Assembly (NCBI GenBank): GCA_910575815.1
Contig: CAJTFN010000008.1
Location: 124,001 to 188,000 of the forward strand
Direction: 5' to 3'
Source: Oscillospiraceae bacterium
GTDB taxonomy: Bacteria; Bacillota; Clostridia; Oscillospirales; Oscillospiraceae
Length of the DNA: 64,000 nt
Translations under genes and position numbers: made by a program
Shown here: positions 5,225 to 39,630 of the stretch, piece by piece
How positions within the stretch are numbered: the first letter of the stretch is position 1
Layout of the letters: each line of letters opens with the position of its first letter
The notes under the pieces: generated by a model
Told to the model about the DNA's origin: nothing
Databases searched by the model: none
What the model saw: only the letters and a program-made list of their open reading frames with translations

Positions 5225-5237
5225 ATTTCCTGAGTTC

Positions 5238-5267: not shown

Positions 5268-5440
5268 TTGTCAGGCTCCCGATTTTGAGGGAGTATTTTT
5301 ATTCAATTTCACGGTTTGTTTACAATTTAGACAAAGGAGAACCGTTTATTTTTGCTATTTTGACCGTCAGATTTTGGGAACTCCTTTGGGTGAGTGGATA
5401 CGTTTTCATAAGTTTACGCACACTTCCCAAGGGATATGAA

Positions 5441-21515: not shown

Positions 21516-21563
21516 ATAATATTTGTGGAAACCATCCCATTATCAAATACCAGGAGGCTCAAC

Positions 21564-23147
21564 ATGGCCGCTTTCCAAGACGAGATCGCCCGGAGGCGAA
21601 CCTTCGCCATCATTTCCCACCCTGACGCGGGCAAAACCACACTCACGGAAAAACTCCTTCTCTACGGCGGAGCCATCGCCCAGGCGGGCGAGGTTAAGGG
21701 CAAACGGGCCCGGGCCGCCACCTCCGACTGGATGGAGATCGAAAAGCAAAGAGGTATTTCCGTCACCTCCTCCGTTATGCAGTTCCAGCACGACGGCTAT
21801 TGCGTGAACATTTTGGATACCCCGGGGCATCAGGACTTCTCCGAGGATACCTACCGTACCCTCATGGCGGCGGACTCCGCCGTCATGGTCATCGACGCCG
21901 CCAAGGGCGTGGAGCCCCAGACGAGAAAGCTCTTCCGGGTTTGCGCCCTGCGGCACATCCCTATTTTCACCTTCATCAACAAGATGGACCGGGAGAGCCG
22001 GGATCCTCTGGAGCTCTGCGGCGAGGTGGAGGCGGAGCTGGGCATCGACACCTATCCCATGAACTGGCCCATCGGCTCTGGAAAGGAGTTCCAGGGGGTC
22101 TACGACCGGGAGGAGGGCCGTATTCTCTTCTTCTCCGGCGAGGGCCACGCCAAAAAGGCCGAGGCCACCGCCGTGGACCTGGACGATCCCAACCTGGGGA
22201 GCATGATTGGAGAGAGCCGCTGGCGGCAGCTCCAGGAGGAGGTGGAACTTCTGGGAGCGGGCCGGGACTTTGATCTGGAGGCCGTCCGGGCGGGGACCCT
22301 CTCCCCGGTCTTCTTTGGCTCCGCCCTGACGAATTTCGGCGTGGAGCCCTTTCTGAAGGCCTTCCTCCGCATGACCTCCGCTCCCCTGAGCCGTATGGCG
22401 GGAGAGGAGGAGATCGACGCGTTTTCCCCGGACTTTTCCGCCTTCGTCTTCAAGATTCAGGCGAATATGAACAAGGCCCATCGAGACCGTTTGGCCTTCA
22501 TGCGCATCTGTTCCGGCCGCTTCCAGCGGGACACGGAATACTTCCACGTCCAGTCCGGCAAGAAGATGCGCCTCTCCCAGCCCCAGCAGATGATGGCGGC
22601 GGAGCGGGAAATCGTGGACGAGGCCTATGCCGGGGACATCATCGGCGTTTTCGATCCGGGCATTTTCTCCATTGGGGACACGGTGACCGTGCCGGGGAAG
22701 AAGTTCCGCTACGCGGGCATCCCTACCTTTGAGCCGGAGCACTTTATGCGGGTCAGCCCCAAGGACACCATGAAGCGCAAGCAGTTCATCAAGGGCACGG
22801 AGCAGATCGCCCAGGAAGGCGCCATCCAGATCTTCAAGCGCCCCGGCGGCGGCATGGAAGAGGTGGTGGTGGGCGTTGTCGGCACCTTGCAGTTTGACGT
22901 CTTCCAGTATCGCATGAGGGCGGAGTATGGCGTGGAGCTCTATATGGAGGGCCTGCCCTATGACCATTTGCGGCTGATTACCAAGTGCCCCTGCAAGCCT
23001 GACGAGTTGGTTCTCTGCACCGGCGCGGCGGTGCTGGAGGACTTTAAGGACCGGCTGCTGGTTGCCTTTGGCGGCGAGTGGTCCGTAGGATTTTTGACGA
23101 AGCACAACCCCGGTTTGACACTGGAGGACGCTTTGAGCGTGTCCTGA
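21564..23147 (+). CDS. prfC: Peptide chain release factor 3
   Basis: 527 residues. This translational GTPase removes RF1/RF2 from the ribosome after peptide release. G-domain motifs: G1 SHPDAGKTTLTEKL near the N-terminus, G2/switch at KQRGISVTSS, G3 DTPGHQDFSEDTYR, G4 NKMDRE. Domain II and the RF3-specific C-terminal region (RPGGGMEEVVVGVVG) follow, and the length matches the family. I start at ATG 21564 because CAGGAGG lies 8 nt upstream; the frame extends 13 codons further without support. It is a lone gene behind its own promoter. Confidence 0.93.
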   Translation: MAAFQDEIARRRTFAIISHPDAGKTTLTEKLLLYGGAIAQAGEVKGKRARAATSDWMEIEKQRGISVTSSVMQFQHDGYCVNILDTPGHQDFSEDTYRTLMAADSAVMVIDAAKGVEPQTRKLFRVCALRHIPIFTFINKMDRESRDPLELCGEVEAELGIDTYPMNWPIGSGKEFQGVYDREEGRILFFSGEGHAKKAEATAVDLDDPNLGSMIGESRWRQLQEEVELLGAGRDFDLEAVRAGTLSPVFFGSALTNFGVEPFLKAFLRMTSAPLSRMAGEEEIDAFSPDFSAFVFKIQANMNKAHRDRLAFMRICSGRFQRDTEYFHVQSGKKMRLSQPQQMMAAEREIVDEAYAGDIIGVFDPGIFSIGDTVTVPGKKFRYAGIPTFEPEHFMRVSPKDTMKRKQFIKGTEQIAQEGAIQIFKRPGGGMEEVVVGVVGTLQFDVFQYRMRAEYGVELYMEGLPYDHLRLITKCPCKPDELVLCTGAAVLEDFKDRLLVAFGGEWSVGFLTKHNPGLTLEDALSVS

Positions 23148-23393
23148 GCCGCCGGTTCCTCCGTGTTGTGAATCCGTTTCCGCTCCGGGGAAGCGGGCCG
23201 CGTCCTTGAGACGGCGCCGCCGGGAGTTGATTGTGCGGAGAACCAACGGATCCGTCTTGACTCCGGCCATGACCTCCCCCGGGGAAAGGCGGACGCGGAA
23301 CCGCCCTTACAGGGGAAGGCCTCCCAATCCAGATGGGGCAGAACACGCCCGCAAGACCGCCAGGGCCTGCGGCGGGAGGGCAAGAGGTGCGAT

Positions 23394-24083
23394 ATGAAGT
23401 CGATTTTAATTGTGGAAGACGACCGGGCCTTGGGGGATGGATTGTGTCTGGCCCTGCGGAGCCCGGAGCTTGAGCCGGTGCTGTGCCGAAGCCTTTCCGC
23501 CGCCCGGAACGCCCTGGCGGAGCGGGACTTTGACCTGCTGCTTCTGGACGTGAACCTCCCCGACGGAAACGGGCTGGAATTCCTTCGCCGGTTCCGGAGC
23601 GCCGCCGGTTCGGTTCCCGTCATTTTGCTGACGGCCAACGATATGGAGATGGACATCGTGGCGGGCTTGGAGTCCGGGGCGGACGACTACGTGACCAAGC
23701 CCTTCTCTCTGGCGGTGCTCCGGGCCCGGGTGAACGCCCAGCTCCGCCGGGGGGAGGGGACCGGCGGCCCCCTGGTGCTGGAGAATTTCTCCTTTGACTT
23801 TGAGCGCATGGAATTCCGGCGGGACGGGCGGCCCGTGGAGCTGAGCAAGACCGAGCAGAAGCTCCTCCGTATTCTGGTGGAGAACCGGGGGCGGACCCTG
23901 CCCCGGGGACAGCTGGTGGACTGGGTCTGGACCGACGGGGCGGAGTACGTGGACGAGAACGCCCTGTCCGTGACGGTGAAACGTCTCCGGGGCAAGCTGG
24001 AGGAGAATCCCTCCAGGCCCCGCTTCCTGAAAACCGTTTATGGCATCGGCTATACCTGGACCGCCGGCGAGAAAGAGGGCTGA
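23394..24083 (+). CDS. OmpR-family response regulator
   Basis: 229 residues. The receiver domain has acidic pocket EDD, phospho-acceptor Asp in LLLLDVNLPDG, Thr in LLTAND and Lys in VTKPFS. The C-terminal winged helix ends with VKRLRGKLEENPSRPRFLKTV-like recognition elements and YGIGY. A ribosome site AGAGGTG precedes the ATG. The cognate kinase gene begins 3 nt after the stop. Such pairs usually sit next to an ABC transporter for antimicrobial peptides; none is adjacent here. The upstream 246 nt (23148-23393) shows no gene and no clear promoter. Confidence 0.88.
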   Translation: MKSILIVEDDRALGDGLCLALRSPELEPVLCRSLSAARNALAERDFDLLLLDVNLPDGNGLEFLRRFRSAAGSVPVILLTANDMEMDIVAGLESGADDYVTKPFSLAVLRARVNAQLRRGEGTGGPLVLENFSFDFERMEFRRDGRPVELSKTEQKLLRILVENRGRTLPRGQLVDWVWTDGAEYVDENALSVTVKRLRGKLEENPSRPRFLKTVYGIGYTWTAGEKEG

Positions 24084-24086
24084 GGC

Positions 24087-24974
24087 ATGACGAAAGCCCT
24101 TTGCCTTGCCGCCCTGGCACTTTTGCTGTTGTACCTCTGGCACCGCTGGCAAATGGGCCGTCTGCTCCGCCGGCTGGACCAGATGCTGGACGAGGCCATC
24201 CGGGGGGAGTTTCGGGAGGAGTCCTTCAACGAGACCCTGCTGTCCGCCGTGGAGACGAGGCTGGCCCATTACCTCAGCGCCTCCGCCGTCTCCGCCCGGA
24301 ATCTCCAGGAGGAGCGAGATAAAATCAAGTCCCTCATCGCCGACATCTCCCACCAGACGAAAACCCCCATCGCCAACGTGCTTTTGTACACCCAGCTTTT
24401 GGAGGAGCAGACCCCGGAGAACTGCCGGGCCTATACCGCCGCTTTGGGGGGACAGGCCCGGAAGCTTCAGTCCCTCATTGACGCGCTGGTGAAGACCTCC
24501 CGTCTGGAGGCGGGTGTGCTGGTCATGCGTCCCCGGCCCGGGTCCCTGGGACCGGTGCTGGAGGAGGCGGTTCTCCAGCTGGCACCCAAGGCGGCGGAGA
24601 AGGGGCTGGAGCTGAAATTGGAACCCGCTGAGGCTGAGGCGGTCTTCGACCCCAAGTGGACGGCGGAGGCCCTGTGCAACCTCATTGACAACGCCGTCAA
24701 ATATACCCCTTCCGGCAGCGTCACCGTCAGTGCCCGGGCCTATGAGCTCTTTGCCCGGGTGGACGTGGAGGACACGGGACCGGGTATCCCGGAGGCGGAG
24801 CTGGAAAAGCTCTTTCAGCGGTTTTATCGGGGGCCGGAAACCGGAGACACCGAGGGCGTGGGCGTGGGGCTCTATCTGGTCCGGCAGATCGCCCAGAGTC
24901 AGGGCGGCTATGTGAAGGTTTTTTCCAGGGAGGGAAGAGGGGCGAGGTTCTCCCTCTTCCTGCCCCGAACCTGA
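24087..24974 (+). CDS. Membrane-tethered sensor histidine kinase
   Basis: 295 residues: one N-terminal membrane helix (about 3-20), no external sensor domain, HisKA with IADISHQTKTPIANV (His phospho-acceptor), N-box LIDNAVKYT, G1 DTGPGIP, F-box LFQRFYRG and G2 GVGVGLYLV. All kinase motifs are intact. The lack of an input domain suggests it senses through the membrane or a partner protein, as in small BceS/VncS-like kinases. It is in an operon with the response regulator before it and converges on vanT; the 187 nt between (24975-25161) holds nothing recognisable. Confidence 0.85.
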   Translation: MTKALCLAALALLLLYLWHRWQMGRLLRRLDQMLDEAIRGEFREESFNETLLSAVETRLAHYLSASAVSARNLQEERDKIKSLIADISHQTKTPIANVLLYTQLLEEQTPENCRAYTAALGGQARKLQSLIDALVKTSRLEAGVLVMRPRPGSLGPVLEEAVLQLAPKAAEKGLELKLEPAEAEAVFDPKWTAEALCNLIDNAVKYTPSGSVTVSARAYELFARVDVEDTGPGIPEAELEKLFQRFYRGPETGDTEGVGVGLYLVRQIAQSQGGYVKVFSREGRGARFSLFLPRT

Positions 24975-25161
24975 GAGCGCTGCCCCGGCGCGTCCCATTG
25001 CGCCTTTTAATACGACTCTGTTTCCCAAACGCCATTCCCAGACAAAACGCAGACAGACGCGCCCGATGGACGCCCTGCCTGCGTTTTTCATGGCCGGAAA
25101 GCCGGATATCGTCAAAGCCTGTAAACATCGGGCCCCCGGGGTTTGCCTGGGAAGTCCGCCG

Positions 25162-27294
25162 TCAGGCCATCTTGCGGCCTCTGGGGAGTATGCGCGCATC
25201 AGGGCCGAAAAGAAGCTCCGGCTTCTTTTCGACTATGCGGTAGCTGCAAGCCCGTTTTCCCAGACGGGACAAGAGCTCGTTGGTGATGGTGCCGCAGCGC
25301 TCCGCCACCTCCTCCGCCGGAATTTCCTGGTCCCCGTCCCGGCCGATGAGGGTGGCGACGTCCCCCGCCCGGACCTCCGGCACGCCAGTCACGTCCACCA
25401 GCAGCTGATCCATGCACATGCGCCCCGCCATGGGACAGGAGACCCCGCGGAGCAGCACCCGTCCCCCCTGCTGGGACAGGGCACGGGGCAGACCGTCGGC
25501 ATAGCCGATGGTGAGCACGGCCAGCCGGGTTTCCCGCTCCGCCTGAAAGGCGAGGCCGTAGCCCGCCCGGTCCCCGGGGCGGAGGGTCCGCACACAGGCC
25601 ACCCGGGCCCGAAGGGACAGCACCGGATGCAGCTCCGGCCACCGCCGGGGGAGGCCGCCGCCGCTGGAAACGCCGTAAAGAACGATGCCCGCCCGGACAT
25701 AGGCGCAGGGCTGGGGCGGCAGATTCAAAAGGCCGTAGCTGGACTGAATGTGGAGCTTCCCGGGGTCAAGACCCTGCCGGCGCAGGCGGTCCACCGCCGC
25801 GGAAAAGCGGTCCAGCTGCCCGGTTGTGTAGCGCTCCAGCTCCGGATTGTCCGAGACGCAGAGGTGGGAGAAGACGCCCTCTATCCGCAGCTCCCGCCTG
25901 GCATAGAGCCGGGTCAGGGCGGCGATGTCCTCCGCGGGGATGCCCAGACGGTGCATGCCCGTGTCCAGGGCCAGATGGACCCGGAGGGGGAGACCCTGGT
26001 CTGCCAGGGCGTGGCCGTGGTCCTCGTCCGCCACCGCCTGGGTCAGATGCCAGCGGCGGAGCTGGGGAACCAGCTCCGGCGGCGTGTAGCCCAGAATCAG
26101 GATGGTGCCCCGGACGCCCGCCTTCCGCAGGGCGATTCCCTCCGAAAGGCAGGCCACGGCAAAGTCCCGGACGCCCGCCCGCCAAAGACATCGGGCGGAG
26201 GAAGGCGCCCCGTGGCCATAGGCGTCCGCTTTTAAAACTGCCATCAGGGCGCAGCGCTCGGGCAGCAAAGCCTGGAGAGCCTGAGCGTTGTGCCGGAGGG
26301 CGGAGAGGTCAATCTCCCGCCAGGCCCGGCTGCGGGAAGGGACGGGGAGAGGCCGGAGGGCGTCCAGTACCCAGGCGGAGGCCAGGGAGGCGGCCAGCAC
26401 GGCGGCAAAGCGGAGAAGGCTGTTCTTCTCCAGGGGACCGGCCAGCCAGGGCAGCCGCTGTCCGGCTCCCGCCAGGGCGATGAACCAGGGGTGAAGAAGA
26501 TAGACCAGCATGGACAACCTCCGGGCCCGCCGGTCGGTTCCCTGATTGCGGTCCAGCAGCAGGGAGAAGAGAAAAACCATGCACAGGGGCAGAGTGAGGT
26601 ACATGCTGTCGTGCCTCTGCCAGCCCAGGGAGCGGAGGATGAAGCCCTCGGCGGTCATGGCTCCCAGGGAGAGAAGAAAGCCCGCCAAGGCCCTCCGGCC
26701 CCGCCAACGCATCCCGGCGGCTCCCAAAAGAAGGAACAGCGGGATGTAAAACAGCCCGTTCCGGGTGTGTTGGAAGAGGAGAAATGTCGCGTCGTAGAAA
26801 GCTCTGGGGCCGGAGAACTGGGAAACCAGCCCATAGTAGCTGTCCCCGCCCAGGCCAAGGAGGTACAGCCCGGCGGCGGCGGTCAGGGCGGCCCGACGCC
26901 CCAGCCGGGAGAGGCTCCGGGCGATTAGGACCCCCAGCAGGACGGCGGGAAAATACCAGAGGTGGTACAGCGTCCCATCCAGGAACAGCCGTTTTCCCCA
27001 TTCGGGGAGGTGGTACCCGCCGCCGTAGAGATTCAGGGGCAGGTAGAGGAGAACGGCGGCAGCGTAGATTGCCAGGGTTTTTTTCAGGAACCTCTCGGCG
27101 CCGCGCCACTGGTCCTTTTCCAGGAAATACCCACTGACCATGAGGAAGAAGGGCACGGCGATTCGGGCGAAGACCCGGCAGAGCCAGAAATCCGCTGCCG
27201 CGTTGCAGCCCGCCAGTGGACCGGTGTGGATGCACACCACCAGTACCGCCGCCAGAAGGCGGAAGCGGTCCAGGACAGGGCCCCGGGCGCTCAT
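25162..27294 (-). CDS. vanT: VanT-type membrane-bound serine/alanine racemase
   Basis: 710 residues. The N-terminal half (about 1-335) is a ten-or-so-helix acyltransferase-3-like membrane domain thought to bring in L-Ser; the C-terminal half (about 340-710) is a fold type III PLP alanine racemase with the PLP lysine in AVLKADAYGHGA (Lys355). This fusion is diagnostic of VanT, which supplies D-Ser for D-Ala-D-Ser synthesis. The ATG at 27294 overlaps the vanXY stop by 4 nt; the frame is open further upstream, but only as a shadow of vanXY. It is the last gene of the van cluster. Confidence 0.93.
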   Translation of the reverse strand: MSARGPVLDRFRLLAAVLVVCIHTGPLAGCNAAADFWLCRVFARIAVPFFLMVSGYFLEKDQWRGAERFLKKTLAIYAAAVLLYLPLNLYGGGYHLPEWGKRLFLDGTLYHLWYFPAVLLGVLIARSLSRLGRRAALTAAAGLYLLGLGGDSYYGLVSQFSGPRAFYDATFLLFQHTRNGLFYIPLFLLLGAAGMRWRGRRALAGFLLSLGAMTAEGFILRSLGWQRHDSMYLTLPLCMVFLFSLLLDRNQGTDRRARRLSMLVYLLHPWFIALAGAGQRLPWLAGPLEKNSLLRFAAVLAASLASAWVLDALRPLPVPSRSRAWREIDLSALRHNAQALQALLPERCALMAVLKADAYGHGAPSSARCLWRAGVRDFAVACLSEGIALRKAGVRGTILILGYTPPELVPQLRRWHLTQAVADEDHGHALADQGLPLRVHLALDTGMHRLGIPAEDIAALTRLYARRELRIEGVFSHLCVSDNPELERYTTGQLDRFSAAVDRLRRQGLDPGKLHIQSSYGLLNLPPQPCAYVRAGIVLYGVSSGGGLPRRWPELHPVLSLRARVACVRTLRPGDRAGYGLAFQAERETRLAVLTIGYADGLPRALSQQGGRVLLRGVSCPMAGRMCMDQLLVDVTGVPEVRAGDVATLIGRDGDQEIPAEEVAERCGTITNELLSRLGKRACSYRIVEKKPELLFGPDARILPRGRKMA

Positions 27295-28034
27295 GCCGGG
27301 GCCTCCCAGACGGTGAGGATGAAGCCGCCGTCGTTGTCCCCGGAGATTTGGCAGCAGCCCTCCGGCAGCTCCACCTCCACCGACTCTCCAGGGCAGGCCA
27401 GCCAAAAGACCTCCACCCGCCGCCCGTTGGAGAGGACGCGGCGCTTGGGCCCGGTGCGGAGAAAGCCCCCGTACTCCTCCAGGCACAGGCCCCGCTCTTC
27501 CATCAGCGCCGCGTGGGGCACGCCTACGTAACGGAAGTGCCAGGGCTCCGCCCCGATGCCGGTGACGGCCTCCTTTTCTTTCCGGTAGCGCAGGATGAAG
27601 CCGTACCGGGCGGCCAGGCGGCGGAAGGCCCCGCAGCCCCCCTGGTCCGGGAAGTCCGGGCAGAGGAAGTCGACACGCTCCGCCCGCTTTCCCAGGTCGA
27701 TGGCCAGGCCCGTCTGGTGCTCGCTGCACCCGGGGAGAGCCACGTAGCGGCAGGTAAAGTCCTCGCCCCGGTTGGCCCAGGCACTGTCCCAGATGGATTG
27801 CTGTTCCCCCCGGCTCCGCCATCCGGAGACGGGGACGATGTCCTCCGTCCCTCCCGCCGCCCGGATGCAGGCCGTCAGCAGCCCGGCGGTCCGCCGCTCC
27901 AGGAGGATGTCCGGGAAGCGGCTGTCCGGGGCCGTCAGCTCCGGAGGGGGAGCGGGACGAAGGGGATGAGAGGGGTTCACCAGAATGAGGGGGCCCTGGG
28001 CGGTCTGGTCCCGCCGGAGCGTTAAGGTCCTCAT
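27291..28034 (-). CDS. vanXY: VanXY-type D,D-peptidase/D,D-carboxypeptidase
   Basis: 247 residues, no signal peptide or membrane helix, so cytoplasmic. The zinc and catalytic residues of the VanX/VanY metallopeptidase fold are in place: SEHQTGLAID (His106, Asp113) and EPWHFRYVG (Glu163, His166), plus GWRSRGEQQ. A soluble enzyme of this size between the ligase and vanT is typical of VanXY, which cleaves D-Ala-D-Ala and pentapeptide ends so that only D-Ala-D-Ser is used. The C-terminal 50 residues form a small extra beta-like domain. Overlaps of 4 nt with vanG and with vanT imply coupled translation. Confidence 0.9.
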   Translation of the reverse strand: MRTLTLRRDQTAQGPLILVNPSHPLRPAPPPELTAPDSRFPDILLERRTAGLLTACIRAAGGTEDIVPVSGWRSRGEQQSIWDSAWANRGEDFTCRYVALPGCSEHQTGLAIDLGKRAERVDFLCPDFPDQGGCGAFRRLAARYGFILRYRKEKEAVTGIGAEPWHFRYVGVPHAALMEERGLCLEEYGGFLRTGPKRRVLSNGRRVEVFWLACPGESVEVELPEGCCQISGDNDGGFILTVWEAPA

Positions 28035-29083
28035 GGCTTCATCCCCAGTTCCACCAAACGGTCCAGCAGGGCGGGGAACTCCAGGCCTGCGGCTTTCATC
28101 ATGCTGGGGTAGCGGCTGTGGGCGGTGAAGCCGGGGATGGTATTCACCTCGTTGAAGACGATTTCCCCCTCCGGGGTGAGGAAAAAATCTGCCCGGGCGA
28201 AGCAGCGGCAGTCCAGGGCGGTGTAGACGGTCCGGGCCGCGGCCTGGATTTCCGCCGCTTTTTCCTGGGAGATTCGGGCGGGGCAGTGGATGGCGGAGGT
28301 CTTAAGGGTGTATTTCTCGTGGAAGTCGAAAAAGCCCCCGGAAAGCTCGATCTCGTCCACGGCTCCCACGGTGAGCTCCGTTTTCCCAGGGTTCCCCAAA
28401 ACGGCGCAGCCCACCTCAAAGCCGGGAATGGCCTCCTCCAGGAGAATCCGGCTGTCCTCCCGGAAGGCGGCCTCCGCGGCGGCGGCCAGCTCCTCCGGGC
28501 GGCTGACCCGGCTGACGCCAAAGGAGGACCCCGCCCGCAGGGGCTTCGCGAACAGGGGATAGCCCAGGCTCTCCGCCGCCTCCGCCAGCTCTTTCCGAGG
28601 GGCTCCGGCGAAAAAGACCGCGCTTTTGGGCGTCCGGAGACCCGCCAGGGCCGCCAGCTTGTGGGCGCGGTCCTTGTCCATGCACAGGGCGCTGGATAGA
28701 GCGCCGCAGCCGATGAGAGGGACCCCCACCAGCTCCAGAAGCCCCTGAACGGTGCCGTCCTCGCCGTTTTTCCCGTGGAGAACGGGGAAGGCGGCGTCAA
28801 AGGCCAGCGCCTCCCGGGAGCCCTCGGGGAAGAGCAGGGAGAACTGTCCCCGGTCCAGCCGGAGGGCGCAGGGGATGCAGCCGGGGTCCTCCTGCCAATC
28901 CCCGGCGGGGAGCCGGTCCAGGGGGCCGGGATAATAAAGCCAGCGGCCCTCCCGGGTGACGCCCACGGGAAGGGCTTGGTATTTCTTTGCGTCCAGATGG
29001 GTCAGGACCGCGTGAGCGGATTGAAGAGAGACGCTGTGCTCGCTGGAGCAGCCGCCGAAGAGGACCAAAATTGTTTTCATCAT
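28031..29083 (-). CDS. vanG: VanG-type D-Ala:D-Ser ligase
   Basis: 350-residue ATP-grasp ligase. N-terminal LVLFGGCSSEHSVSL, ATP/metal site near LNEVNTIPGF in the form IVFNEVNTIPGF, and LHGKNGEDGTVQGLLEL match the Ddl/Van superfamily. The omega-loop segment FDFHEKYTLKTSAIH fits the D-Ala-D-Ser subgroup (VanC, VanE, VanG) rather than the D-Lac ligases. A D-Ala:D-Ala ligase is the alternative, but vanXY and vanT are coupled to it. The start ATG at 29083 has AGGAAAGG upstream. The gene lies directly behind a terminator-like hairpin and VanR-box-like repeats. Confidence 0.92.
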   Translation of the reverse strand: MMKTILVLFGGCSSEHSVSLQSAHAVLTHLDAKKYQALPVGVTREGRWLYYPGPLDRLPAGDWQEDPGCIPCALRLDRGQFSLLFPEGSREALAFDAAFPVLHGKNGEDGTVQGLLELVGVPLIGCGALSSALCMDKDRAHKLAALAGLRTPKSAVFFAGAPRKELAEAAESLGYPLFAKPLRAGSSFGVSRVSRPEELAAAAEAAFREDSRILLEEAIPGFEVGCAVLGNPGKTELTVGAVDEIELSGGFFDFHEKYTLKTSAIHCPARISQEKAAEIQAAARTVYTALDCRCFARADFFLTPEGEIVFNEVNTIPGFTAHSRYPSMMKAAGLEFPALLDRLVELGMKP

Positions 29084-29110
29084 CCATCAAACCTTTCCTG
29101 GGACGGAAAA

Positions 29111-29153
29111 CCCGCCCCGATCTGTTGCCTACATGGTAACAGACCGGGGCGGG
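29111..29153 (-). terminator. Terminator-like hairpin between vanS and vanG
   Basis: A 16-bp stem (cccgccccg... paired arms, one G-U) with an 11-nt loop, followed on the minus strand by TTTTCC. It starts 62 nt after the vanS stop and ends 28 nt before the vanG start. It may end vanRS transcripts, or act as a leader attenuator if the vanG promoter lies upstream of it. Confidence 0.75.
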
Positions 29154-29202
29154 AAAGGTTTGGAGGCTTTTTTGAAAAGTTCTTGGAAAGTCCTGTTGAA
29201 AA

Positions 29203-29221
29203 TCTTACGATTTTCTTACGA
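29203..29221 (-). promoter_or_regulatory. VanR-box-like direct repeats at the end of vanS
   Basis: On the minus strand TCGTAAGA occurs twice, 11 bp apart (29221-29214 and 29210-29203), overlapping the vanS stop. The first reads TCGTAAGAAAATC, 12 of 13 matches to the VanR-box consensus TCGTANGAAANTT as I recall it from VanA-type promoters. One helical turn of spacing fits a dimeric OmpR-family regulator. A clear -10 box is not visible downstream. Confidence 0.6.
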
Positions 29222-30307
29222 CGCCGGGAGGCGGACGGTGAAGGTGGTCACGCCGTCCTGGCTCTGGGCGGCGATGGTTCCCCCATGGAGCTCCACAATC
29301 TCCCGGGCGATGGCCAGCCCCAGTCCCGCGCCGCCGGTGCGGGAGGCCCGGGAGGAGTCCAGACGGAAGAACTGCTCGAAGATGCGTCCCAGCTTGTCCG
29401 GGGGAATGGTGACGCCGGTGTTGGTGAAGGTGAGAACCGTCTCCCCCTCCTCCACCTGGGCGGCAATGGCCACGGCGGTGCCTGCCTCGCTGTAGTGGCA
29501 GGCGTTCCGCAGCAGATTGTCAAACACCCGGGCCAGCTTGTCCGGGTCGCAGGAATAGGGGAGGGTCTCCGGCAGGTCCAGACGGCAGGTCAGTTCCCGT
29601 TCCTCCAGCATGGGGGCGAACTCGCTGGCTACCTGCTGGAGCATCCGGCTGAGGTCGCAGGGACGTTTCTCCAGCTCCATGTGGGTGAGGTTAAAGCGGG
29701 TGACGTCGAAAAACTCGTTGATCAGGTCCTCAAGCCGCTCCGCCTTGTCCAGGGCGACGCTGGTGTACCGGGCCCGGAGCTCCGGGGACAGCCCCGGCTC
29801 GTCCCGGAGTAGGGTCAGGTAGCCGATGACGCTGGTGAGGGGTGTTTTCAAATCGTGGGCCAGGTAGATTACCAGATCGTTTTTCCGCTGCTCCGCCTCC
29901 TTGGCGGCCCGCTGGTCCCGGAGGGCCTTGCTCTGGGCCCAGTTCAGGTGCTCCTCCAAAATGGACAGCTCCGGGGAGAGGAGAATAGGCTCGTCGCCGG
30001 GCTGGGTCAGCTGTTCCGCTGCGTCCACCATTTCGTCCAGAAAATCCAGGGGCTTGCGGATGAAGTGCACGGTGCACCCCAGCCAGCAGACGCCCAGGCT
30101 GAGGAGAAAGAGGAGGAGAACGTAGTCCCGGCAGAAATAGAGAATGTAGGTCAGGATGACGTTGCTTCGCCAGAAGGAGAAGGTTCCGAAAAAGAAGATA
30201 CAGGCCCCCGCCAGAAAGACGACGACCCCCAGGGAGCCGAAAAGGCTCAGTGCATATTGGCCCAGGAGCTTCCGGGAGACGCGGCCGGTGTAGTTGAAGT
30301 CATTCAA
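29216..30307 (-). CDS. vanS: VanS-type sensor histidine kinase
   Basis: About 363 residues. Two membrane helices (about 20-40 and 55-80) enclose a very short external loop, followed by a HAMP-like linker, HisKA with YLAHDLKTPLTSVIGYL (the VanS-style H-box), N-box LLRNACHYS, G1-like TNTGVTIP and G2 GAGLGLAI. I place the start at TTG 30307, which overlaps the vanR stop by 8 nt and follows a G-rich ribosome site; the frame extends 27 codons into vanR only as a shadow. It is predicted to respond to glycopeptides or the resulting envelope stress and to phosphorylate VanR. Confidence 0.85.
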   Translation of the reverse strand: MNDFNYTGRVSRKLLGQYALSLFGSLGVVVFLAGACIFFFGTFSFWRSNVILTYILYFCRDYVLLLFLLSLGVCWLGCTVHFIRKPLDFLDEMVDAAEQLTQPGDEPILLSPELSILEEHLNWAQSKALRDQRAAKEAEQRKNDLVIYLAHDLKTPLTSVIGYLTLLRDEPGLSPELRARYTSVALDKAERLEDLINEFFDVTRFNLTHMELEKRPCDLSRMLQQVASEFAPMLEERELTCRLDLPETLPYSCDPDKLARVFDNLLRNACHYSEAGTAVAIAAQVEEGETVLTFTNTGVTIPPDKLGRIFEQFFRLDSSRASRTGGAGLGLAIAREIVELHGGTIAAQSQDGVTTFTVRLPAS

Positions 30308-30989
30308 TGGTATACCCCACCCCCCAGACGGTTTTGATAAACTTGGGCCGCCGGCTGGGCTCGTGGAGCTTTTCCCGCAGCCGGGCAATGTGGCTCATGA
30401 CGGTGTTGTTGCTGTCCATATACTTCTCCCCCCAGACGGCCTCAAAGAGCTCCTCGCTGGAGACCACCCGGCCCTGCCGCCGGCAGAGGTACCAGAGGAT
30501 GGAGAACTCCAGGGGCGTGAGGGACAGTTCCTCGCCGTAGAGGAGGCACTTGTGGGTTTGCCGGGAGATTTGCAGTCCCCGGATGTCGAACTCCTGAGCC
30601 TCCTCCTGCGGGGGGCGGTTGTAGCGGGTGTAGCGCCGGAGCTGGGTCTTGACCCGGGCGGTGAGCTCCAGGGGATTGAAGGGCTTGGTAATATAGTCGT
30701 CGGCCCCCAGGGTGAGGCCGGTGATTTTGTCCATGTCCTCCACCCGGGCGGTGAGCATGAGAATGGGGAAGAGGTGCCTTTCCCGGATGCGCTGGCAGAG
30801 GGTGAAGCCGTCCATATCGGGCAGCATCACATCCAGAATGGCCAGGTCCGGAGGTGTCTTCTCCACGTGGGCCAGGGCCGGGGCGGCGCTGTCGAATTTG
30901 TGAACGGTAAACCCCTCGTTTTTCAGGTACAGCTCCACCAGATCGGCGATGGCGGCCTCGTCGTCTACCACTAGGATGTCTGCGGCCAT
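30300..30989 (-). CDS. vanR: VanR-type OmpR-family response regulator
   Basis: 229 residues, closely VanR-like: ILVVDDEAAIADLVELYLKN at the start, phospho-acceptor in AILDVMLPDMDGF, DKITGLTLGADDYITKPF, and a C-terminal winged helix (TVMSHIARLREKL). It would activate vanG-XY-T through the boxes at the end of vanS. First gene of the cluster, behind its own promoter, and overlapping vanS. Confidence 0.9.
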   Translation of the reverse strand: MAADILVVDDEAAIADLVELYLKNEGFTVHKFDSAAPALAHVEKTPPDLAILDVMLPDMDGFTLCQRIRERHLFPILMLTARVEDMDKITGLTLGADDYITKPFNPLELTARVKTQLRRYTRYNRPPQEEAQEFDIRGLQISRQTHKCLLYGEELSLTPLEFSILWYLCRRQGRVVSSEELFEAVWGEKYMDSNNTVMSHIARLREKLHEPSRRPKFIKTVWGVGYTIE

Positions 30990-31023
30990 GTTGCGAAACC
31001 TGCTTTCTCAAAAGTCTGCCTGT

Positions 31024-31052
31024 ATGATAGCACAAAGCCGCCCTCAGAGCAA
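31024..31052 (-). promoter_or_regulatory. Promoter of vanRS
   Basis: Minus-strand TTGCTC (31052-31047), 17-nt spacer, TATCAT (31029-31024), about 35 nt before the vanR ATG. No VanR-box-like repeat is seen here, so vanRS expression may be constitutive. Confidence 0.6.
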
Positions 31053-31109
31053 CCGCCTGGGGGAAAAAGAGGGCGTTTTGCCGCGTATTTTATAGATGCC
31101 GCAGGTTCT

Positions 31110-31269
31110 TAGAGCGGTTCCCCAAAATACTGAGAAAAGCTCGGCGGGCCAGAGGCTGCATAGCTGCGTTGCCGTCCTTGACGGGTGTCAGCCCGTCTGC
31201 GTCCTTCGCTTTGCTCTGCGATCTCTGTCCCCGCCTCCTTTTTTCTCATTGTTTCTGGAAACTGCTCTA
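31110..31269. mobile_element. MITE-like element with imperfect terminal inverted repeats
   Basis: 160 bp bounded by TAGAGC...GCTCTA. The outer ends align as inverted repeats with interruptions (TAGAGCgGTTcCC..AAA..GAGAAAA on one side, TAGAGCaGTTtCC..AAA..GAGAAAA on the other), while the interior is unrelated to its neighbours and non-coding. It supplies the TAG stop of the small gene ending at 31267. Too short for a transposase; a non-autonomous element is the best reading. No second copy is in the window. Confidence 0.55.
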
Positions 31270-31512
31270 GTTCCGCGCTCGGGCGGAGCCAATCATGTAG
31301 TCCAAAAAAGCGGGCATGTCTCTGGCGTCGGAAAGGCTGATGCACAACCCCTCCTGCCGGGGACGCATGACCCGGAGCATCTGGCGGGCGGTGTGGTCCC
31401 GCTTCAGGTCGCAGCGGCTGTCGTCCGGCAGATGGAGCAGCACCTGTCCCCGGCTGTGTTCCACCACCCGCAAAAAGTTCTCCGTGTCCGGGAGCATCAT
31501 AATTTTAAACAT
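31267..31512 (-). CDS. Small HPr-like protein of unknown role
   Basis: 81 residues starting MFKIMMLPDTENFLRVVEH. The pattern (a short beta strand, 'F-R-V-V', then a glycine turn and 'DLKRD') resembles short clostridial HPr-fold proteins often mislabelled polyA polymerase; the HPr phospho-His is not evident. The start is supported by CAGGAGG 6 nt upstream. Its stop codon lies inside the inverted repeat of the neighbouring MITE-like element, so the original C-terminus may have been altered. Confidence 0.55.
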   Translation of the reverse strand: MFKIMMLPDTENFLRVVEHSRGQVLLHLPDDSRCDLKRDHTARQMLRVMRPRQEGLCISLSDARDMPAFLDYMIGSARARN

Positions 31513-31654
31513 AAGCGCCTCCTGCTGTATGGTTTTATCCATGTGGTCTTGAAGGTTTTGCTGGTTTCTGATAGGATGATACCATCCAATACAGCGGAAC
31601 GGTAGAAAGAAAACGCCGGTTTACTAGGATAAAACCGTCAGAATGGAGGGAGCT

Positions 31655-32599
31655 ATGGCTTTGAGCCTCTGCGAAAGCGCAATCGACCGGCAGAGCCGGG
31701 AATTGGCTCGCCACGGCACGGCGCCTTTTCCCCTGGCCTGCTACTGGCACGACGGGCAGTCGGTGAATATGGTGCCCTGGCACTGGCATGACGAGCTGGA
31801 GGTTGTGCTGGTCTGGGAGGGAAAGGTCTTTGTCTCCGTGGAGGGGGAGAGCCGGCAGCTGGGGGTCGGCGAGGGCTGCTTCATCACCGCCGGAGCCCTT
31901 CACCGGATCTGGCAGGAGGGAGAGGCGGACGTGGAGGTCCACTCCCTGGTCTTCCATCCCCGGCTGGTGGGCGGGAGCGTGGAGAGCGTCTTCTGGCAGG
32001 GGTATTTGCAGCCTCTGCTGGACAGCGCCGCCAACCGCTGCGTCTGGCTGGAGGCGGGCGTCCCTTGGCAGGGGGAGGCCATGGAGGCCGTGGAGTCGGC
32101 GTGGCGGTCCTGCGGCGAGGAGCCGCCGGGGTTTGAGTTCCTGGCCCGGGAGGGCTTGTCCCGCTTGATCTTCCTTCTCTCCGCCCACCGTCCGGCGGCC
32201 CGGGAGGGCCCCTCGGAGAAGGCCCTGCGGGACGGGGAGCGGACGAAGCGGATGCTCCGCCATATTCAAGAGCACTACGGTGAGGAACTCTCCGTGGCGA
32301 AAATCGCCGGGAGCGCCGCTGTCAGCGAGAGCGAGTGCCTGCGGTGCTTCCGGAGCGTGATCGGCGTCACGCCCATGCAGTACGTCAAGCAGTTCCGGGT
32401 GGAGCGGGCGGCGGAACTGCTGGCGTCCGGGGAGGGAAGGATTTCCGACGTGGGGGCCCGGTGCGGCTTTCAGGAGATGAGCTATTTCGCCAGGACCTTC
32501 CGGGAGCTGAAGGGCCGGACGCCCAGCCGTTACCAGGCGGAGGCCCGGGCCTTTCGGAAGAACCTCAGCGATGACGCCTCCGATACTCCAGAGGGCTGA
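31655..32599 (+). CDS. AraC-family regulator with cupin sensor
   Basis: 314 residues. The N-terminal cupin domain has HWHDELEVVLVWEGKV and SLVFHPRLVGG; the C-terminal pair of HTH motifs has VAKIAGSAAVSESECLRCFR and ISDVGARCGFQEMSYFARTF. The cupin probably binds a sugar or small metabolite. I start at ATG 31655, 6 nt after GGAGGG; an ATG 12 nt upstream overlaps that site. Its 3' end overlaps the convergent AraC gene by 35 nt. The target is unknown. Confidence 0.85.
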   Translation: MALSLCESAIDRQSRELARHGTAPFPLACYWHDGQSVNMVPWHWHDELEVVLVWEGKVFVSVEGESRQLGVGEGCFITAGALHRIWQEGEADVEVHSLVFHPRLVGGSVESVFWQGYLQPLLDSAANRCVWLEAGVPWQGEAMEAVESAWRSCGEEPPGFEFLAREGLSRLIFLLSAHRPAAREGPSEKALRDGERTKRMLRHIQEHYGEELSVAKIAGSAAVSESECLRCFRSVIGVTPMQYVKQFRVERAAELLASGEGRISDVGARCGFQEMSYFARTFRELKGRTPSRYQAEARAFRKNLSDDASDTPEG

Positions 32600-33383
32600 C
32601 GCCCTCCATCCGGCGAAAGCACTGGGAAAAGTAGCTCAGGGAGGAAAAGCCCAGAATCTGGGCGATGAGGGACAGGGGGTGGTCCGTCTCCCGGAGAAGG
32701 AAGCGGCTCTCCTCAATCCGCCGGGACATCAGGTAGTTGATGGGGGAGACGCCGAACTCCCGGCGGAAGCTGTGGGCCAGATAATACTTGTTCAGGTGGG
32801 CCAGTTGGGCCAGCTGGTCCAAGCTCAGGTTTTCCTTAAAGTGGTTGTCGATGTACCGCCGGACCAAACCGCACTCCCGGCTGGACCGGGCACCGGAGGA
32901 CTCGCCGGAGAGGGCGGCGTCCTGCTGGCGGTTCAGACGGACCAGCACGACGTCCAACAGGCTCCGGCAGACCCGCTCATAGCCCGGCAGAGCCTCCCGG
33001 GCCTCCTGGAGCATGAGCTGGAGGCAGCCCATCAGCTCGTCCCAGCCGGTGTGGAGGTGGAGCATGGCGTATCCCTCCGCGCCGGCCAGGGTCTCCAGAC
33101 CCTCCACCCCCAGAACCGTGTATTCCAGAGGGCTGTCTAGGCGGCTGGTCTCCGTGTGCGGGACGTTGGCGTTGATGATGACGGTGTCGTGAATGGCCAC
33201 AGGAAACGCCTCCCGCCGGGTGCGGAAATGGCCGTGGCCCCCGGTGATAAAGAAGAGCTCGGCGCAGCCGTGGGTGTGGAGACTGGAGTTCCAGTCGCTG
33301 CTGTATTGCGCCTGGGAGACGTAAAGCAGCCGGGGCGCGGCGCCCCCCTGCTCCCGGGGAAGGGCATATTGCTGCTGGCTCAT
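32565..33383 (-). CDS. AraC-family regulator divergent from the sugar importer
   Basis: 272 residues. N-terminal cupin-like domain (LHTHGCAELFFITGGHG) and C-terminal tandem HTH (LDQLAQLAHLNKYYLAHSFR and LSLIAQILGFSSLSYFSQCF). AAAGGAGG precedes the ATG. It is transcribed away from the sugar ABC importer and GH112 genes and is their most likely regulator, sensing the imported glycan. Confidence 0.87.
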   Translation of the reverse strand: MSQQQYALPREQGGAAPRLLYVSQAQYSSDWNSSLHTHGCAELFFITGGHGHFRTRREAFPVAIHDTVIINANVPHTETSRLDSPLEYTVLGVEGLETLAGAEGYAMLHLHTGWDELMGCLQLMLQEAREALPGYERVCRSLLDVVLVRLNRQQDAALSGESSGARSSRECGLVRRYIDNHFKENLSLDQLAQLAHLNKYYLAHSFRREFGVSPINYLMSRRIEESRFLLRETDHPLSLIAQILGFSSLSYFSQCFRRMEGVSPLEYRRRHR

Positions 33384-33780
33384 GGTTCAAACCTCCTTTT
33401 CTGAAACGGGGAGTGCTGAAAGGCAAAGCGCCGTTCCGGGGGGCTGCGCAATTTTGTGAAAATTGCCAGCGGCGGTACTTGTCCATGATTATAGCGCCTT
33501 TGTGGGGTTCGCGCAACTTTCCGGCGGATATTTTCCGGTCTTTGACAGGAGAACCAACACCTTATACAAGAGAAAAACAGAAAATTATCCAACATGCCCA
33601 AAGAGCTCAAAAAATAATCGCAGAAAATGGGCGAAAACGCAAAAAGAGCAAAATTTATAAAAAGTTCCGCAAGATACAGACTGTTTTGCCAGGGGAAAAC
33701 CCGCTATACTAAAGACTCGAAAGGGCCGGATTTCGGCCAATGGAAGCGGATATTCCCCTACATTATAAGGAGGTAAACCC
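33384..33780 (+). promoter_or_regulatory. AraC/importer intergenic control region
   Basis: 397 nt without a gene. TATACT at 33705-33710 is a good -10 box, but the hexamer 17 nt upstream (TGTTTT) is a poor -35, which fits AraC-type activation. The region from 33590 to 33700 is unusually A-rich. The binding-protein gene has TAAGGAGG upstream of its ATG. Confidence 0.5.
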
Positions 33781-35178
33781 ATGAAGAAGTTTCTCAGTCT
33801 CTTGTTGGCGCTGACCTTGGCGCTGTCTCTGGCCGCCTGCGGCGGCGGAAACGGCGGCTCCGACGCCGGGAGCACTCCTCCCCCCGCTGATTCCGGCAGC
33901 TCCGGCGATACCCAGACGCCCCCTCCCGCCGAGGACGTGACCATCACGGTGGCCGCCCTGGCCTCCGGCTATGAGGAAGCGTATCCCGGTATGTGGCAGG
34001 AGGTCTGCGACGCCTTCACCGCCGAGACCGGCATCAAGGTCAACCTGATCTGCGACAAGAATCTGGAGGACGTCATCGGCCCGTCCATGCAGGGCGGCGA
34101 CTTCCCCGACGTGATTCACCTGGCCACCGGCCGTGAGAAGGGCCTCACCGAGCAGTTCATCAAGGACCGCAACATTGCCGAGCTCACCGACGTGCTGTCC
34201 ATGATCGTCCCCGGCGAGAGCGTCAAGGTCTCCGACAAGATCGTCGGCGGCTTTACCGACACCTCCGTCACCAACCCCTACGGCGACGGCGTGACCTACC
34301 TGGCCCCCATGTTCTACTCCCCCTGCGGCCTGTTCTATAACGCGGGCCTCTTCGAGGAGAAGGGCTGGAGCGTTCCCACCACCTGGGACGAGATGTGGGA
34401 GCTGGGGGACAAGGCCCACGCCGAGGACCCCAACATGTACCTCTTCACCTATCCCACCACCGGCTATTTCGATGCCTTCCTGTACGCGCTGATGTACTCC
34501 GTGGGCGGCGCAGACTTCTTTAACAATGCCACCACCTACGCTGAGGGCATCTGGGATACCCCCGAGGCGCAGCAGTGCTTTGACATCATTGCCAAGCTGG
34601 CCAGCTACACCAATCCCGTCACCCCCGCCCAGGCCAACGATCAGGACTTCACCCAGAACCAGCAGCTGGTCCTGGACAATAAGGCCCTGTTCATGCCCAA
34701 CGGCACCTGGATCGTCGGCGAGATGGCCGAGGCTCCCAGGGCCGACGGCTTCCGGTGGGGCATGACCGCCCTGCCCGCCGCCGAGGCCGGTGGAAACGGC
34801 GCCAGCTACTGCTGGCTGGAGCAGGCCTGGATTCCCGCCGCGGCTCCCAACCTGGACGCCGCCAAGCAGTTCGTGGCCTTCCTGTACTCCGACGCGGCCT
34901 GCGCCATCTTTGCCAAGGGCGGCGCGGTGCAGCCCGTTCCCGGCCTGACCGACAATCTCGAGGGCGATAACAAGATGTTCTATTCCATCTATGACAACGG
35001 CGCCGACGCGGCCATGGGCAACTTCGCGGCCTACAACGCCGTGGCGGGCCTGGGCACTGTCCGCGAGGTCTTCCTGGATCCTGTCAACGGTCTGGTGAAC
35101 GGCAGCATCTCTGTGGATCAGTGGATCGGCGATGTGAAGTCCGCCAGCGACGAGATGCGGGCCAACATCATGGGCTAA
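33781..35178 (+). CDS. Sugar ABC importer solute-binding lipoprotein
   Basis: 465 residues. Lys-Lys signal peptide with lipobox LAAC (Cys20), a Gly/Ser/Pro linker to about residue 50, then a type-2 carbohydrate-binding protein (family 1): DVIHLATGREKGLTEQFIKD, a mid-domain FYNAGLFEEKGWSVPTTWDE hinge and a C-terminal FLYSDAACAIFAKGG segment. Two permease genes and a GH112 phosphorylase follow, so the ligand is probably a beta-galactosyl disaccharide such as lacto-N-biose or galacto-N-biose. No ATPase gene is in the operon, so a shared MsmX/MalK-type ATPase must serve it. Confidence 0.9.
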   Translation: MKKFLSLLLALTLALSLAACGGGNGGSDAGSTPPPADSGSSGDTQTPPPAEDVTITVAALASGYEEAYPGMWQEVCDAFTAETGIKVNLICDKNLEDVIGPSMQGGDFPDVIHLATGREKGLTEQFIKDRNIAELTDVLSMIVPGESVKVSDKIVGGFTDTSVTNPYGDGVTYLAPMFYSPCGLFYNAGLFEEKGWSVPTTWDEMWELGDKAHAEDPNMYLFTYPTTGYFDAFLYALMYSVGGADFFNNATTYAEGIWDTPEAQQCFDIIAKLASYTNPVTPAQANDQDFTQNQQLVLDNKALFMPNGTWIVGEMAEAPRADGFRWGMTALPAAEAGGNGASYCWLEQAWIPAAAPNLDAAKQFVAFLYSDAACAIFAKGGAVQPVPGLTDNLEGDNKMFYSIYDNGADAAMGNFAAYNAVAGLGTVREVFLDPVNGLVNGSISVDQWIGDVKSASDEMRANIMG

Positions 35179-35211
35179 GCGCCCCGGAAAACCGCATAGT
35201 CCCGAATCCGT

Positions 35212-35245
35212 GGGCGGCGGCGAGTGGTTCTGCTCGCCGCCGCCC
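35212..35245 (+). other. Hairpin between binding-protein and permease genes
   Basis: A 13-bp GC stem (gggcggcggcgag and complement) with an 8-nt loop, followed by GTTTC. Such a structure after a binding-protein gene commonly stabilises its mRNA and reduces readthrough into the permease genes, giving binding protein in excess. Confidence 0.65.
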
Positions 35246-35283
35246 GTTTCATTCCCTCCACATGACCCGAAAGGAGTGGTTTC

Positions 35284-36159: not shown

Positions 36160-36172
36160 AGGGGGCGAGGAT

Positions 36173-37063: not shown

Positions 37064-37175
37064 TCTGCTTTTCTGGAAAGGAACGCAGGCGGGCGAACCC
37101 GCCGCGGGGACCGGGTATGGCTTGGACCGGAGCGGCGGCGCCATCGTGGCATGGTTTTATGAGAGAGGATTTATT

Positions 37176-37382
37176 ATGAAATTTTGGAAAGAGCATATGG
37201 GCCTTCGGGCGCTGTTAATCGGGGGATTCTTCTTCGCGGGGCTGGCCTTGGTGATTTACGGCTGGACCCTGACCGGGAAGATGTCCGGCCTGGGACTGAT
37301 GGTTCTGGGCGTGGTGTTCCTGCTGACGGCGCTGATGGTCTACAACAAGCCCTTTGAGGGCAACAAGGGACCTGGACTTTGA
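37176..37382 (+). CDS. Small two-helix membrane protein in the sugar importer operon
   Basis: 68 residues starting MKFWKEHMGL. Two hydrophobic segments (about 11-29 and 34-53) form a helical hairpin and the tail is charged. GAGAGGAT precedes the ATG, and the gene ends 11 nt before the GH112 start, so it is part of the operon. The family is not recognised; an accessory of the importer is possible. Confidence 0.65.
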   Translation: MKFWKEHMGLRALLIGGFFFAGLALVIYGWTLTGKMSGLGLMVLGVVFLLTALMVYNKPFEGNKGPGL

Positions 37383-37393
37383 GGGAGAAACGT

Positions 37394-39562: not shown

Positions 39563-39581
39563 GCGGAAGATACGTTATTCT

Positions 39582-39617
39582 GTCCGGCGCTTCCTGTTCG
39601 GAGCGCCGGACCATTTT
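39582..39617 (+). terminator. Weak terminator/attenuator after the GH112 gene
   Basis: A 10-bp stem gtccggcgct with a 10-nt loop, followed by CATTTT. It lies between the phosphorylase and pepD, 14 nt before the pepD ribosome site's ATG region, so it may separate the two functions only partly. Confidence 0.5.
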
Positions 39618-39630
39618 AAGGAGGTAACCC

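What the first reader, a model, noticed from the sequence alone, without database searches (positions are those of the whole stretch)
25162..30989. Complete vanG-type operon (vanR-vanS-vanG-vanXY-vanT)
Five genes in the gene order I recall for C. difficile vanG-like loci, each with its diagnostic motifs: VanR/VanS boxes, a D-Ala-D-Ser-type ligase omega loop (EKYTLKTSAIH), VanXY zinc residues His106/Asp113/Glu163/His166 and the VanT acyltransferase-racemase fusion with PLP Lys355. VanG, VanXY and VanT overlap by 4 nt each. The genes are GC-matched to the genome, so this looks resident in a commensal rather than recently acquired. It may be cryptic, inducible, or used for wall variation.
Basis: partly seen in the sequence, partly recalled or inferred. 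Interest (0 to 1): 0.85.

Follow-up and report, generated by a model that had tools for sequence, protein, structure and literature searches.

The report
vanG resistance operon with hairpin promoter
A bacterium related to Oscillibacter carries an intact set of genes for cell-wall building blocks that vancomycin binds poorly, and the switch in front of the enzyme genes lies inside a hairpin that may stop leaky reading from the genes upstream.

Summary
In detail: window 25162-30989 (minus strand) is an intact vanR-vanS-vanG-vanXY-vanT operon. The ligase groups with VanG, apart from the genome's own Ddl, and carries D243/F252/R324, recalled D-Ser determinants. VanT has Asn where the own Alr has Tyr. 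D-Ala-D-Ser synthesis is the best reading. As an operon it is ordinary; it is found in 23 of 86 genomes of the genus, and known carriers elsewhere can be vancomycin-susceptible.

The new part is the vanS-vanG gap. An exact VanR box overlaps the vanS stop codon; 83 bp after its start lies an extended -10, inside a terminator-like hairpin. Of 68 loci with a box (at most 2 mismatches), 40 have TANNAT at exactly 83 bp. The hairpin covaries: 94.3% of cells paired, 11 of 15 pairs with double changes, 0 of 500 shuffles. The layout also follows VanRS before vanW, VanY and ABC-type genes, and occurs in vanA, but not in vanB or one other vanG locus. Proposed: VanR-driven transcripts start past the 5' arm and escape; read-through from vanRS stops. 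No RNA data were available.

The parts
30300..30989 (-). vanR, OmpR-family response regulator (229 aa), Asp53 by motif
   Evidence: NCBIfam NF033117 382.5 bits, over cut-off; motif
29216..30307 (-). vanS, sensor histidine kinase (363 aa, TTG start inferred), two hydrophobic segments with a short loop, His151 by motif
   Evidence: NF033091 382.8 bits, just under the cut-off of 400; hydropathy and H-box
29210..29221 (-). VanR box 1, TCGTAAGAAAAT, exact match to (T/C)CGTANGAAA(T/A)T; contains the vanS stop codon TAA (29216-29218)
   Evidence: consensus from PMC4405338 passages
29177..29210 (-). Box 2 (29199-29210, 2 mismatches) and two weaker repeats in the same 11-bp phase
   Evidence: for box 2 (by mismatch count alone it is at chance level in the window); the weaker repeats are read by eye from the sequence and relatives
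29133..29141 (-). Extended -10, TGT-TACCAT (hexamer 29133-29138), 83 bp after the start of box 1
   Evidence: inferred, no transcript data; the simple sigma-70 scan lists no promoter here
29111..29153 (-). Terminator-like hairpin (18 pairs; 5' arm 29135-29153, 3' arm 29111-29129) followed by TTTT (29107-29110); its 5' arm and loop hold the -10
   Evidence: not listed by the simple terminator scan
29092..29099 (-). Possible ribosome binding site AGGAAAGG of vanG
   Evidence: read by eye from the sequence
28031..29083 (-). vanG, D-Ala:D-Ser-type ligase (350 aa); D243, F252, R324
27291..28034 (-). vanXY, D,D-dipeptidase/carboxypeptidase-like (247 aa); H106, D113, E163, H166
   Evidence: PDB 4f78 E 1.2e-66; residues; NCBIfam cut-offs not reached
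25162..27294 (-). vanT, membrane half fused to a serine racemase half (710 aa); K355, Y579, N672
   Evidence: NF033131 499.6 bits, over cut-off; PDB 4ecl

Best explanation
It is a chromosomal, inducible vanG-type operon. VanS senses a cell-wall stress and phosphorylates VanR. VanR binds phased boxes that begin at the vanS stop codon and activates a promoter whose -10 lies 83 bp further on. The operon then makes D-Ser (VanT), joins D-Ala to D-Ser (VanG) and removes D-Ala-D-Ala ends (VanXY). The -10 lies inside a terminator hairpin. A transcript starting there lacks the hairpin's 5' arm and runs on into vanG, while a transcript coming through from vanRS folds the whole hairpin and stops. The enzymes are thus kept off unless VanR acts. 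Shown by computation: genes, residues, boxes, spacing, covarying hairpin. Inferred: start site, termination, induction, D-Ser end products.
For: Genes and residues. Tree. Separate Ddl and Alr. The 25 VanG matches listed in the genus have no internal stop. VanR box with at most 1 mismatch within 250 nt upstream of the ligase in 49 of 79 relatives (0.8% of shuffles), but upstream of vanR in 1 of 44. TANNAT at exactly 83 bp from the box start in 40 of 68 loci, against 9 at the 40 other distances. Hairpin of 12 or more pairs in 62 of 80 loci, 43 of these with TGNTANNAT starting in the 5' arm or loop. Covariation against shuffles and slid partners. With G-T and A-C mismatches penalised alike, 45 G-T against 11 A-C on the sense strand in 51 loci, which fits RNA better than a DNA palindrome. 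Model R1: in 870 kb, 62 plus-strand matches at E<=0.01, 61 within 500 nt upstream of the ligase, 22 of these 61 not used to build it; found in 45 of 49 loci with vanS adjacent and 15 of 25 without. The ligase of L223 scores 721 bits to 4fu0 (E. faecalis VanG, name recalled) and its hairpin holds TACAAT, the -10 published for E. faecalis PYG.
Against: No RNA ends, footprints or precursor analyses. The element is also present in 15 of 25 loci without vanS nearby, so it is not only a guard against vanRS read-through. 18 of 80 loci lack a hairpin of 12 or more pairs; of the 62 that have one, 19 lack the extended -10 and 18 a clear T-run. The simple promoter and terminator scans list nothing in the gap. 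The vanB gap and a Subdoligranulum vanG locus lack the layout. Similar hairpins score well in front of unrelated genes. Carriers of vanG clusters can be fully susceptible (PMC5814915, passages), so the operon may be cryptic. VanXY and VanS miss NCBIfam cut-offs.
Confidence: 0.7

Rival explanations
1. A vanG operon that is cryptic: open genes but never expressed enough to matter, as reported for other gut Clostridia.
For: R. bromii strains with a VanG cluster were inhibited by 1 ug/ml vancomycin (PMC5814915 passages); vanGCd was not associated with resistance in C. difficile (PMC10269549 passages).
Against: The 25 VanG matches listed in the genus have no internal stop; boxes, -10 spacing and hairpin are conserved, which argues for use, though not necessarily against clinical vancomycin.
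Confidence: 0.2
2. The palindrome around the -10 is a DNA operator for a second, repressing regulator (as VanU in E. faecalis), not a terminator.
For: It is nearly palindromic (R1 also matches the other strand at many of these sites) and overlaps the -10; VanUG and VanRG bind overlapping sites at PYG (PMC4405338 passages).
Against: 45 G-T against 11 A-C mismatches on the sense strand; stem letters vary while 94.3% of cells stay paired; a T-run follows 44 of 62 hairpins; the layout fronts several kinds of effector gene. No search for a vanU gene was made.
Confidence: 0.15
3. The hairpin is an attenuator inside the vanG leader RNA, transcribed from a promoter farther upstream.
For: Strong RNA fold, z -6.35.
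Against: The -10 at a fixed 83 bp from the boxes lies in the 5' arm or loop, so its transcript would lack the 5' arm; the published PYG -10 hexamer equals the one in L223's hairpin.
Confidence: 0.08
4. The ligase is a housekeeping or broad D-Ala-D-Ala ligase.
For: It also exceeds the cut-offs of general D-Ala-D-Ala ligase subfamily models (for example 357.5 bits, cut-off 262).
Against: Tree, D243/R324 and a separate Ddl in the same genome.
Confidence: 0.04

Closest known systems
Enterococcus faecalis vanG operon (BM4518)
   Same: VanG, VanXY, VanT and VanRS types; VanR boxes with the same consensus in the resistance promoter (PMC4405338 passages); the relative L223, nearly identical to 4fu0, carries the published -10 hexamer inside the hairpin
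   Different: No vanY or vanW gene between vanS and vanG here; ligase 53% identical to that of L223. vanU was not searched for
Clostridioides difficile vanGCd
   Same: The five genes vanR, vanS, vanG, vanXY, vanT (PMC11326576 and PMC10269549, passages)
   Different: Its sequence and control region were not read here
vanG clusters of Ruminococcus bromii and other gut Clostridia
   Same: vanG cluster in a gut anaerobe
   Different: R. bromii has an 8-gene cluster flanked by recombinase and conjugation genes (PMC5814915 passages); none of the 14 window neighbours given to Pfam matched such genes
vanA cluster, vanS-vanH gap (L229)
   Same: Box-like sites at 3626 (2 mismatches) and 3659 (1), hairpin 3687-3739, TAGACT at +83 from 3626; R1 21.5 bits
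   Different: D-Ala-D-Lac genes; -10 not TG-extended; the published start site was not available to check

Membership tests
vanG-type resistance operon | VanG-type ligase, apart from Ddl and VanA/B | tested here: met
   495.6 bits against cut-off 495; tree branch 95/97
vanG-type resistance operon | D-Ser determinants Asp243, Phe252, Arg324 (recalled; paper not held) | tested here: met
   81 of 81 VanG-like rows; VanA and VanB also have all three; 18 Ddl rows have V/A/I, F/Y, F/L, so only D243 and R324 set it apart from these Ddl
vanG-type resistance operon | Serine racemase VanT (Asn in place of the Alr Tyr; recalled) | tested here: met
   N672, Asn in 69 of 70 relatives with 1 gap; own Alr has Tyr; NF033131 over cut-off
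vanG-type resistance operon | VanXY D,D-peptidase | tested here: inconclusive
   Residues in 61 of 61 relatives and near full-length match to 4f78, but NCBIfam vanXY_G 215.5 of 500 and vanXY 190.9 of 250
vanG-type resistance operon | VanRS two-component system | tested here: met
   VanR over cut-off; VanS 382.8 against 400, the next family scoring 185.1
vanG-type resistance operon | VanR boxes in the resistance promoter | tested here: met
   One exact box and a tandem copy with 2 mismatches; a box with at most 1 mismatch in 49 of 79 relatives
vanG-type resistance operon | D-Ala-D-Ser precursors and raised vancomycin MIC | not testable with these tools
   Needs biochemistry and culture
E. faecalis vanG in particular | vanY and vanW between vanS and vanG (gene order recalled) | tested here: not met
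   The vanS-vanG gap is 132 nt
E. faecalis vanG in particular | vanU regulator | not tested
   No VanU model or search was run; the small ORF 31267-31542 upstream of vanR has no Pfam match
Intrinsic terminator | GC-rich stem followed by a T-run | tested here: inconclusive
   18 pairs then TTTT, z -6.35, but the simple terminator scan, which wants five T in eight, did not list it
Rfam families | Match to a known RNA family | tested here: not met
   In window 24000-32000 only a chance-level ylbH match at 26729-26813, E 0.39

The most novel reading that the evidence does not exclude
VanR-controlled promoters in Clostridia, and probably that of vanA in enterococci, are built inside the terminator of the upstream vanRS unit. 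The -10 forms part of the 5' arm and loop of the hairpin, at a fixed 83 bp from VanR boxes that often contain the vanS stop codon, so one stretch of about 135 bp serves as coding end, operator, terminator and promoter. The module has been kept while the genes it controls changed (vanG, vanW, VanY, ABC-type genes).
Probability: 0.62. Interest if true: 0.6.

Novelty: new member of a known kind. Interest (0 to 1): 0.45.

Why it matters
The operon adds to the vanG reservoir in gut-type anaerobes and gives a clean case (separate Ddl and Alr, open genes) for asking what these operons do outside pathogens. The control region offers a testable answer to how vanRS can sit directly upstream of costly resistance genes without leaking into them. 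If right, it is shared by clinically important van types and gives a sequence signature for many VanRS-controlled promoters.

Tried and rejected
Housekeeping ligase: rejected by tree and residues. Recent arrival on a mobile element: none of 14 window neighbours given to Pfam is an integrase or transposase (other window ORFs were not tested), and two close relatives share the vanR side, but the patchy spread leaves older gain and loss open. A wider VanR regulon: 26 tandem-box sites in 18 of 86 genomes, control pattern 0; 12 lie within 500 nt upstream of a VanG match, two in the own genome's second VanRS locus, but one in L205 precedes another response regulator, so the motif is not specific to VanR. 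VanR autoregulation: 1 of 44 relatives has a box with at most 1 mismatch upstream of vanR; R1 has one site upstream of a vanR (L231). A hand-written structure was one column off and gave 42.4% paired; the RNAalifold structure replaced it. The hairpin is not confined to vanRS: of 28 distinct R1 sites with at least 37.1 bits listed (394 genomes, strict filters), 10 lie just upstream of vanG, 5 after a vanS with another gene next, 1 upstream of vanR, 11 elsewhere by a tblastn for VanR and VanS (two of these, L232 and L234, with little contig upstream), and 1 (G232) was not examined. Five of the vanG sites are genomes also in the training set. Two of the 41 minus-strand R1 matches (L040, L033) are not mirrors of the vanG hairpin. 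Limits: A1 rows were chosen for a hairpin and TGNTANNAT, so those letters are invariant by selection; my script shuffles permuted two-letter blocks, not true dinucleotide shuffles; rows are related by descent. No paper describing a promoter inside a terminator at a van operon was found by searches (listings of open papers only; one search found no 'hairpin' or 'read-through' in PMC4405338); the classic vanA and vanB promoter papers are not held or were not looked for. PMC11702846 (abstract and passages) concerns an rRNA terminator.
Full report
Observation. The window holds, on the minus strand, five open genes vanR, vanS, vanG, vanXY and vanT from 30989 down to 25162. VanR, VanG and the VanT racemase half exceed NCBIfam cut-offs (VanG by half a bit); VanS falls just short and VanXY well short. 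The best solved relatives are 4fu0, 4f78 and 4ecl, which I recall as E. faecalis VanG, VanXYG and VanTG.

Ligase and racemase. The window ligase aligns to 4fu0 so that the residues I recall as D-Ser determinants (Asp243, Phe252, Arg324; JBC 2012, not held) have the same numbers. All three are present in the window and in the 80 relatives aligned. The own Ddl and 17 relatives' Ddl have V/A/I, F/Y and F/L there, so Phe252 does not discriminate, and VanA and VanB share all three. In a 103-row tree the 82 VanG rows form one side of a branch (95/97), 19 Ddl rows another (96/89) and VanA with VanB a third (long-branch warnings apply, above all to ddlA). The genome has its own Ddl on C1 and Alr on C24. 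VanT carries Lys355, Tyr579 and Asn672; the own Alr has Tyr at the last position.

Spread and place. A scan of named genomes gave 450 confirmed stretches, of which the best 80 were kept; by title they are mainly Oscillospiraceae, with Lachnospiraceae among the more distant. In the genus, 23 of 86 genomes, own included, have a close VanG. In a sample of 394 genomes of the order, 27, own included, have a match over the VanG cut-off. Two of the closest relatives share the neighbourhood: G069 has AraC1-o91-vanR as here, and G033 has the same lacto-N-biose phosphorylase cluster next to vanR but turned round. The prfC-RR2-HK2 trio on the vanT side is a genus feature: HK2 matches occur in 41 of 86 genomes, and in 12 of the 15 stretches fetched around HK2 the trio stands without van genes in view. 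GC3 matches other window genes.

Control region. Published work gives the VanRG box as (T/C)CGTANGAAA(T/A)T in three copies at PYG, -10 TACAAT, and no VanRG binding at PUG (PMC4405338, passages). The window has one exact box at 29210-29221 and a tandem copy 11 bp on; the 4.56-Mb genome has five exact boxes, against one match of the reversed control pattern. In relatives a box with at most one mismatch lies within 250 nt upstream of the ligase in 49 of 79, and upstream of vanR in 1 of 44. The TAA of the box is the vanS stop codon here. In 33 of 39 relatives with such a box and vanS just upstream, the stop lies at offset 3, 14 or 36 from the box start, one phase of an 11-bp repeat.

Promoter in a hairpin. 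The gap folds into an 18-pair stem followed by TTTT. TGTTACCAT, an extended -10, lies in its 5' arm and loop. Without selection on distance, TANNAT occurs at exactly 83 bp from the box start in 40 of 68 loci, against 9 at the 40 other distances tested. A start seven bases after the -10 would fall -2 to +5 bases from the first base of the 3' arm in the 43 loci with the extended -10. On alignment A1 (40 rows), 94.3% of cells pair and 11 of 15 pairs have double changes, with 0 of 500 shuffles reaching either value; slid partners reach at most 50.7% paired. The mismatch bias (45 G-T, 11 A-C) favours an RNA of the sense strand. Rfam gave no match. Simple promoter and terminator scans list nothing in the gap.

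Beyond the window. Model R1 matched 62 of the 80 loci on the plus strand at E<=0.01, 61 of them within 500 nt upstream of the ligase and 22 of these outside the training set; it was found in 45 of 49 loci with vanS adjacent, 15 of 25 with enough contig but no vanS, and 1 of 6 with too little contig to tell. In 394 genomes of the order, further sites follow VanRS-like pairs in front of vanW-vanG (L223, L224), a membrane protein distantly like bacteriocin-associated ones with an ABC ATPase (L225), VanY-family proteins (L226, L235), a C39-like peptidase (L230) and an unidentified ORF (L244). Counted by eye on the printed sequences, the -10-like hexamer lies 83 bp from the first box of the run in L223, L224, L225, L230, L235 and L244 (TACACT in L235, no TG extension in L230), and nearer in L226 and L231. 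L223's ligase scores 721 bits to 4fu0 and its -10 is TACAAT. In vanA the hairpin surrounds TAGACT at +83 from the first box-like site. The vanB gap shows no such box or -10, and R1's weak match there lies inside vanS; the Subdoligranulum vanG locus has a 13-pair hairpin but no TGNTANNAT and no R1 match.

Mechanism. The simplest reading is a promoter nested in the upstream unit's terminator. Read-through RNA contains both arms and stops; RNA started at the nested promoter lacks the 5' arm and continues. This would keep D-Ser wall enzymes off until VanR acts. That the element persists in 15 loci without vanS nearby, and that similar hairpins with a -10-like site occur before unrelated genes, suggests a general insulating device that VanRS modules have kept in a fixed register. 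Termination and start site remain inferred.

Known and new. vanG operons in gut Clostridia are known, among them susceptible carriers (PMC5814915, PMC5073890, PMC10269549, PMC11326576; passages only). As an operon this is a new member of a known kind. The nested promoter was not found described in the searches of open papers named above.

Noticed in passing
L104 (G000:C10:1-14000), 1406-6222, minus strand: The same genome has a second VanR/VanS-like pair (VanR 69% identical) with a VanZ-family gene and an ABC transporter beside a large serine recombinase. Tandem VanR-type boxes precede vanR and the ABC genes, so cross-talk with the vanG promoter is possible; R1 also has a weak match between its vanS and vanZ.
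   Followed up: partly
window 21525-24974: prfC-RR2-HK2 is a common genus cluster (HK2 match in 41 of 86 genomes); the kinase has one hydrophobic segment and its role is unknown.
   Followed up: partly
window 31643-41079: Cluster with two AraC-type regulators, a sugar-binding protein, a lacto-N-biose phosphorylase and an M20-type peptidase next to the van operon; turned round next to vanR in G033.
   Followed up: partly
L170 (OY725857.1, Subdoligranulum variabile, 334,647-bp circular record called a plasmid): vanG-vanXY-vanT (predicted by rgi) on a large record called a plasmid in an Oscillospiraceae species.
   Followed up: no
L202-L205, L207-L209, L211: Tandem boxes like VanR's, often with a further TGTAAGAATT-like repeat, away from vanG; in L205 an OmpR-type response regulator gene follows.
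   Followed up: partly
L232, L233, L236, L240, L243: Terminator-like hairpins with TGNTANNAT inside, not next to VanRS by tblastn; in L243 the stretch just upstream looks like a tRNA end by eye. Nested promoters may be common in these genomes.
   Followed up: no
G011:C19, C43, C41: One genus member carries three VanG-like ligases.
   Followed up: no
window 31267-31542, minus strand: Small ORF (91 aa) upstream of vanR, without Pfam match but conserved beside AraC1 in G069 and G033.
   Followed up: partly
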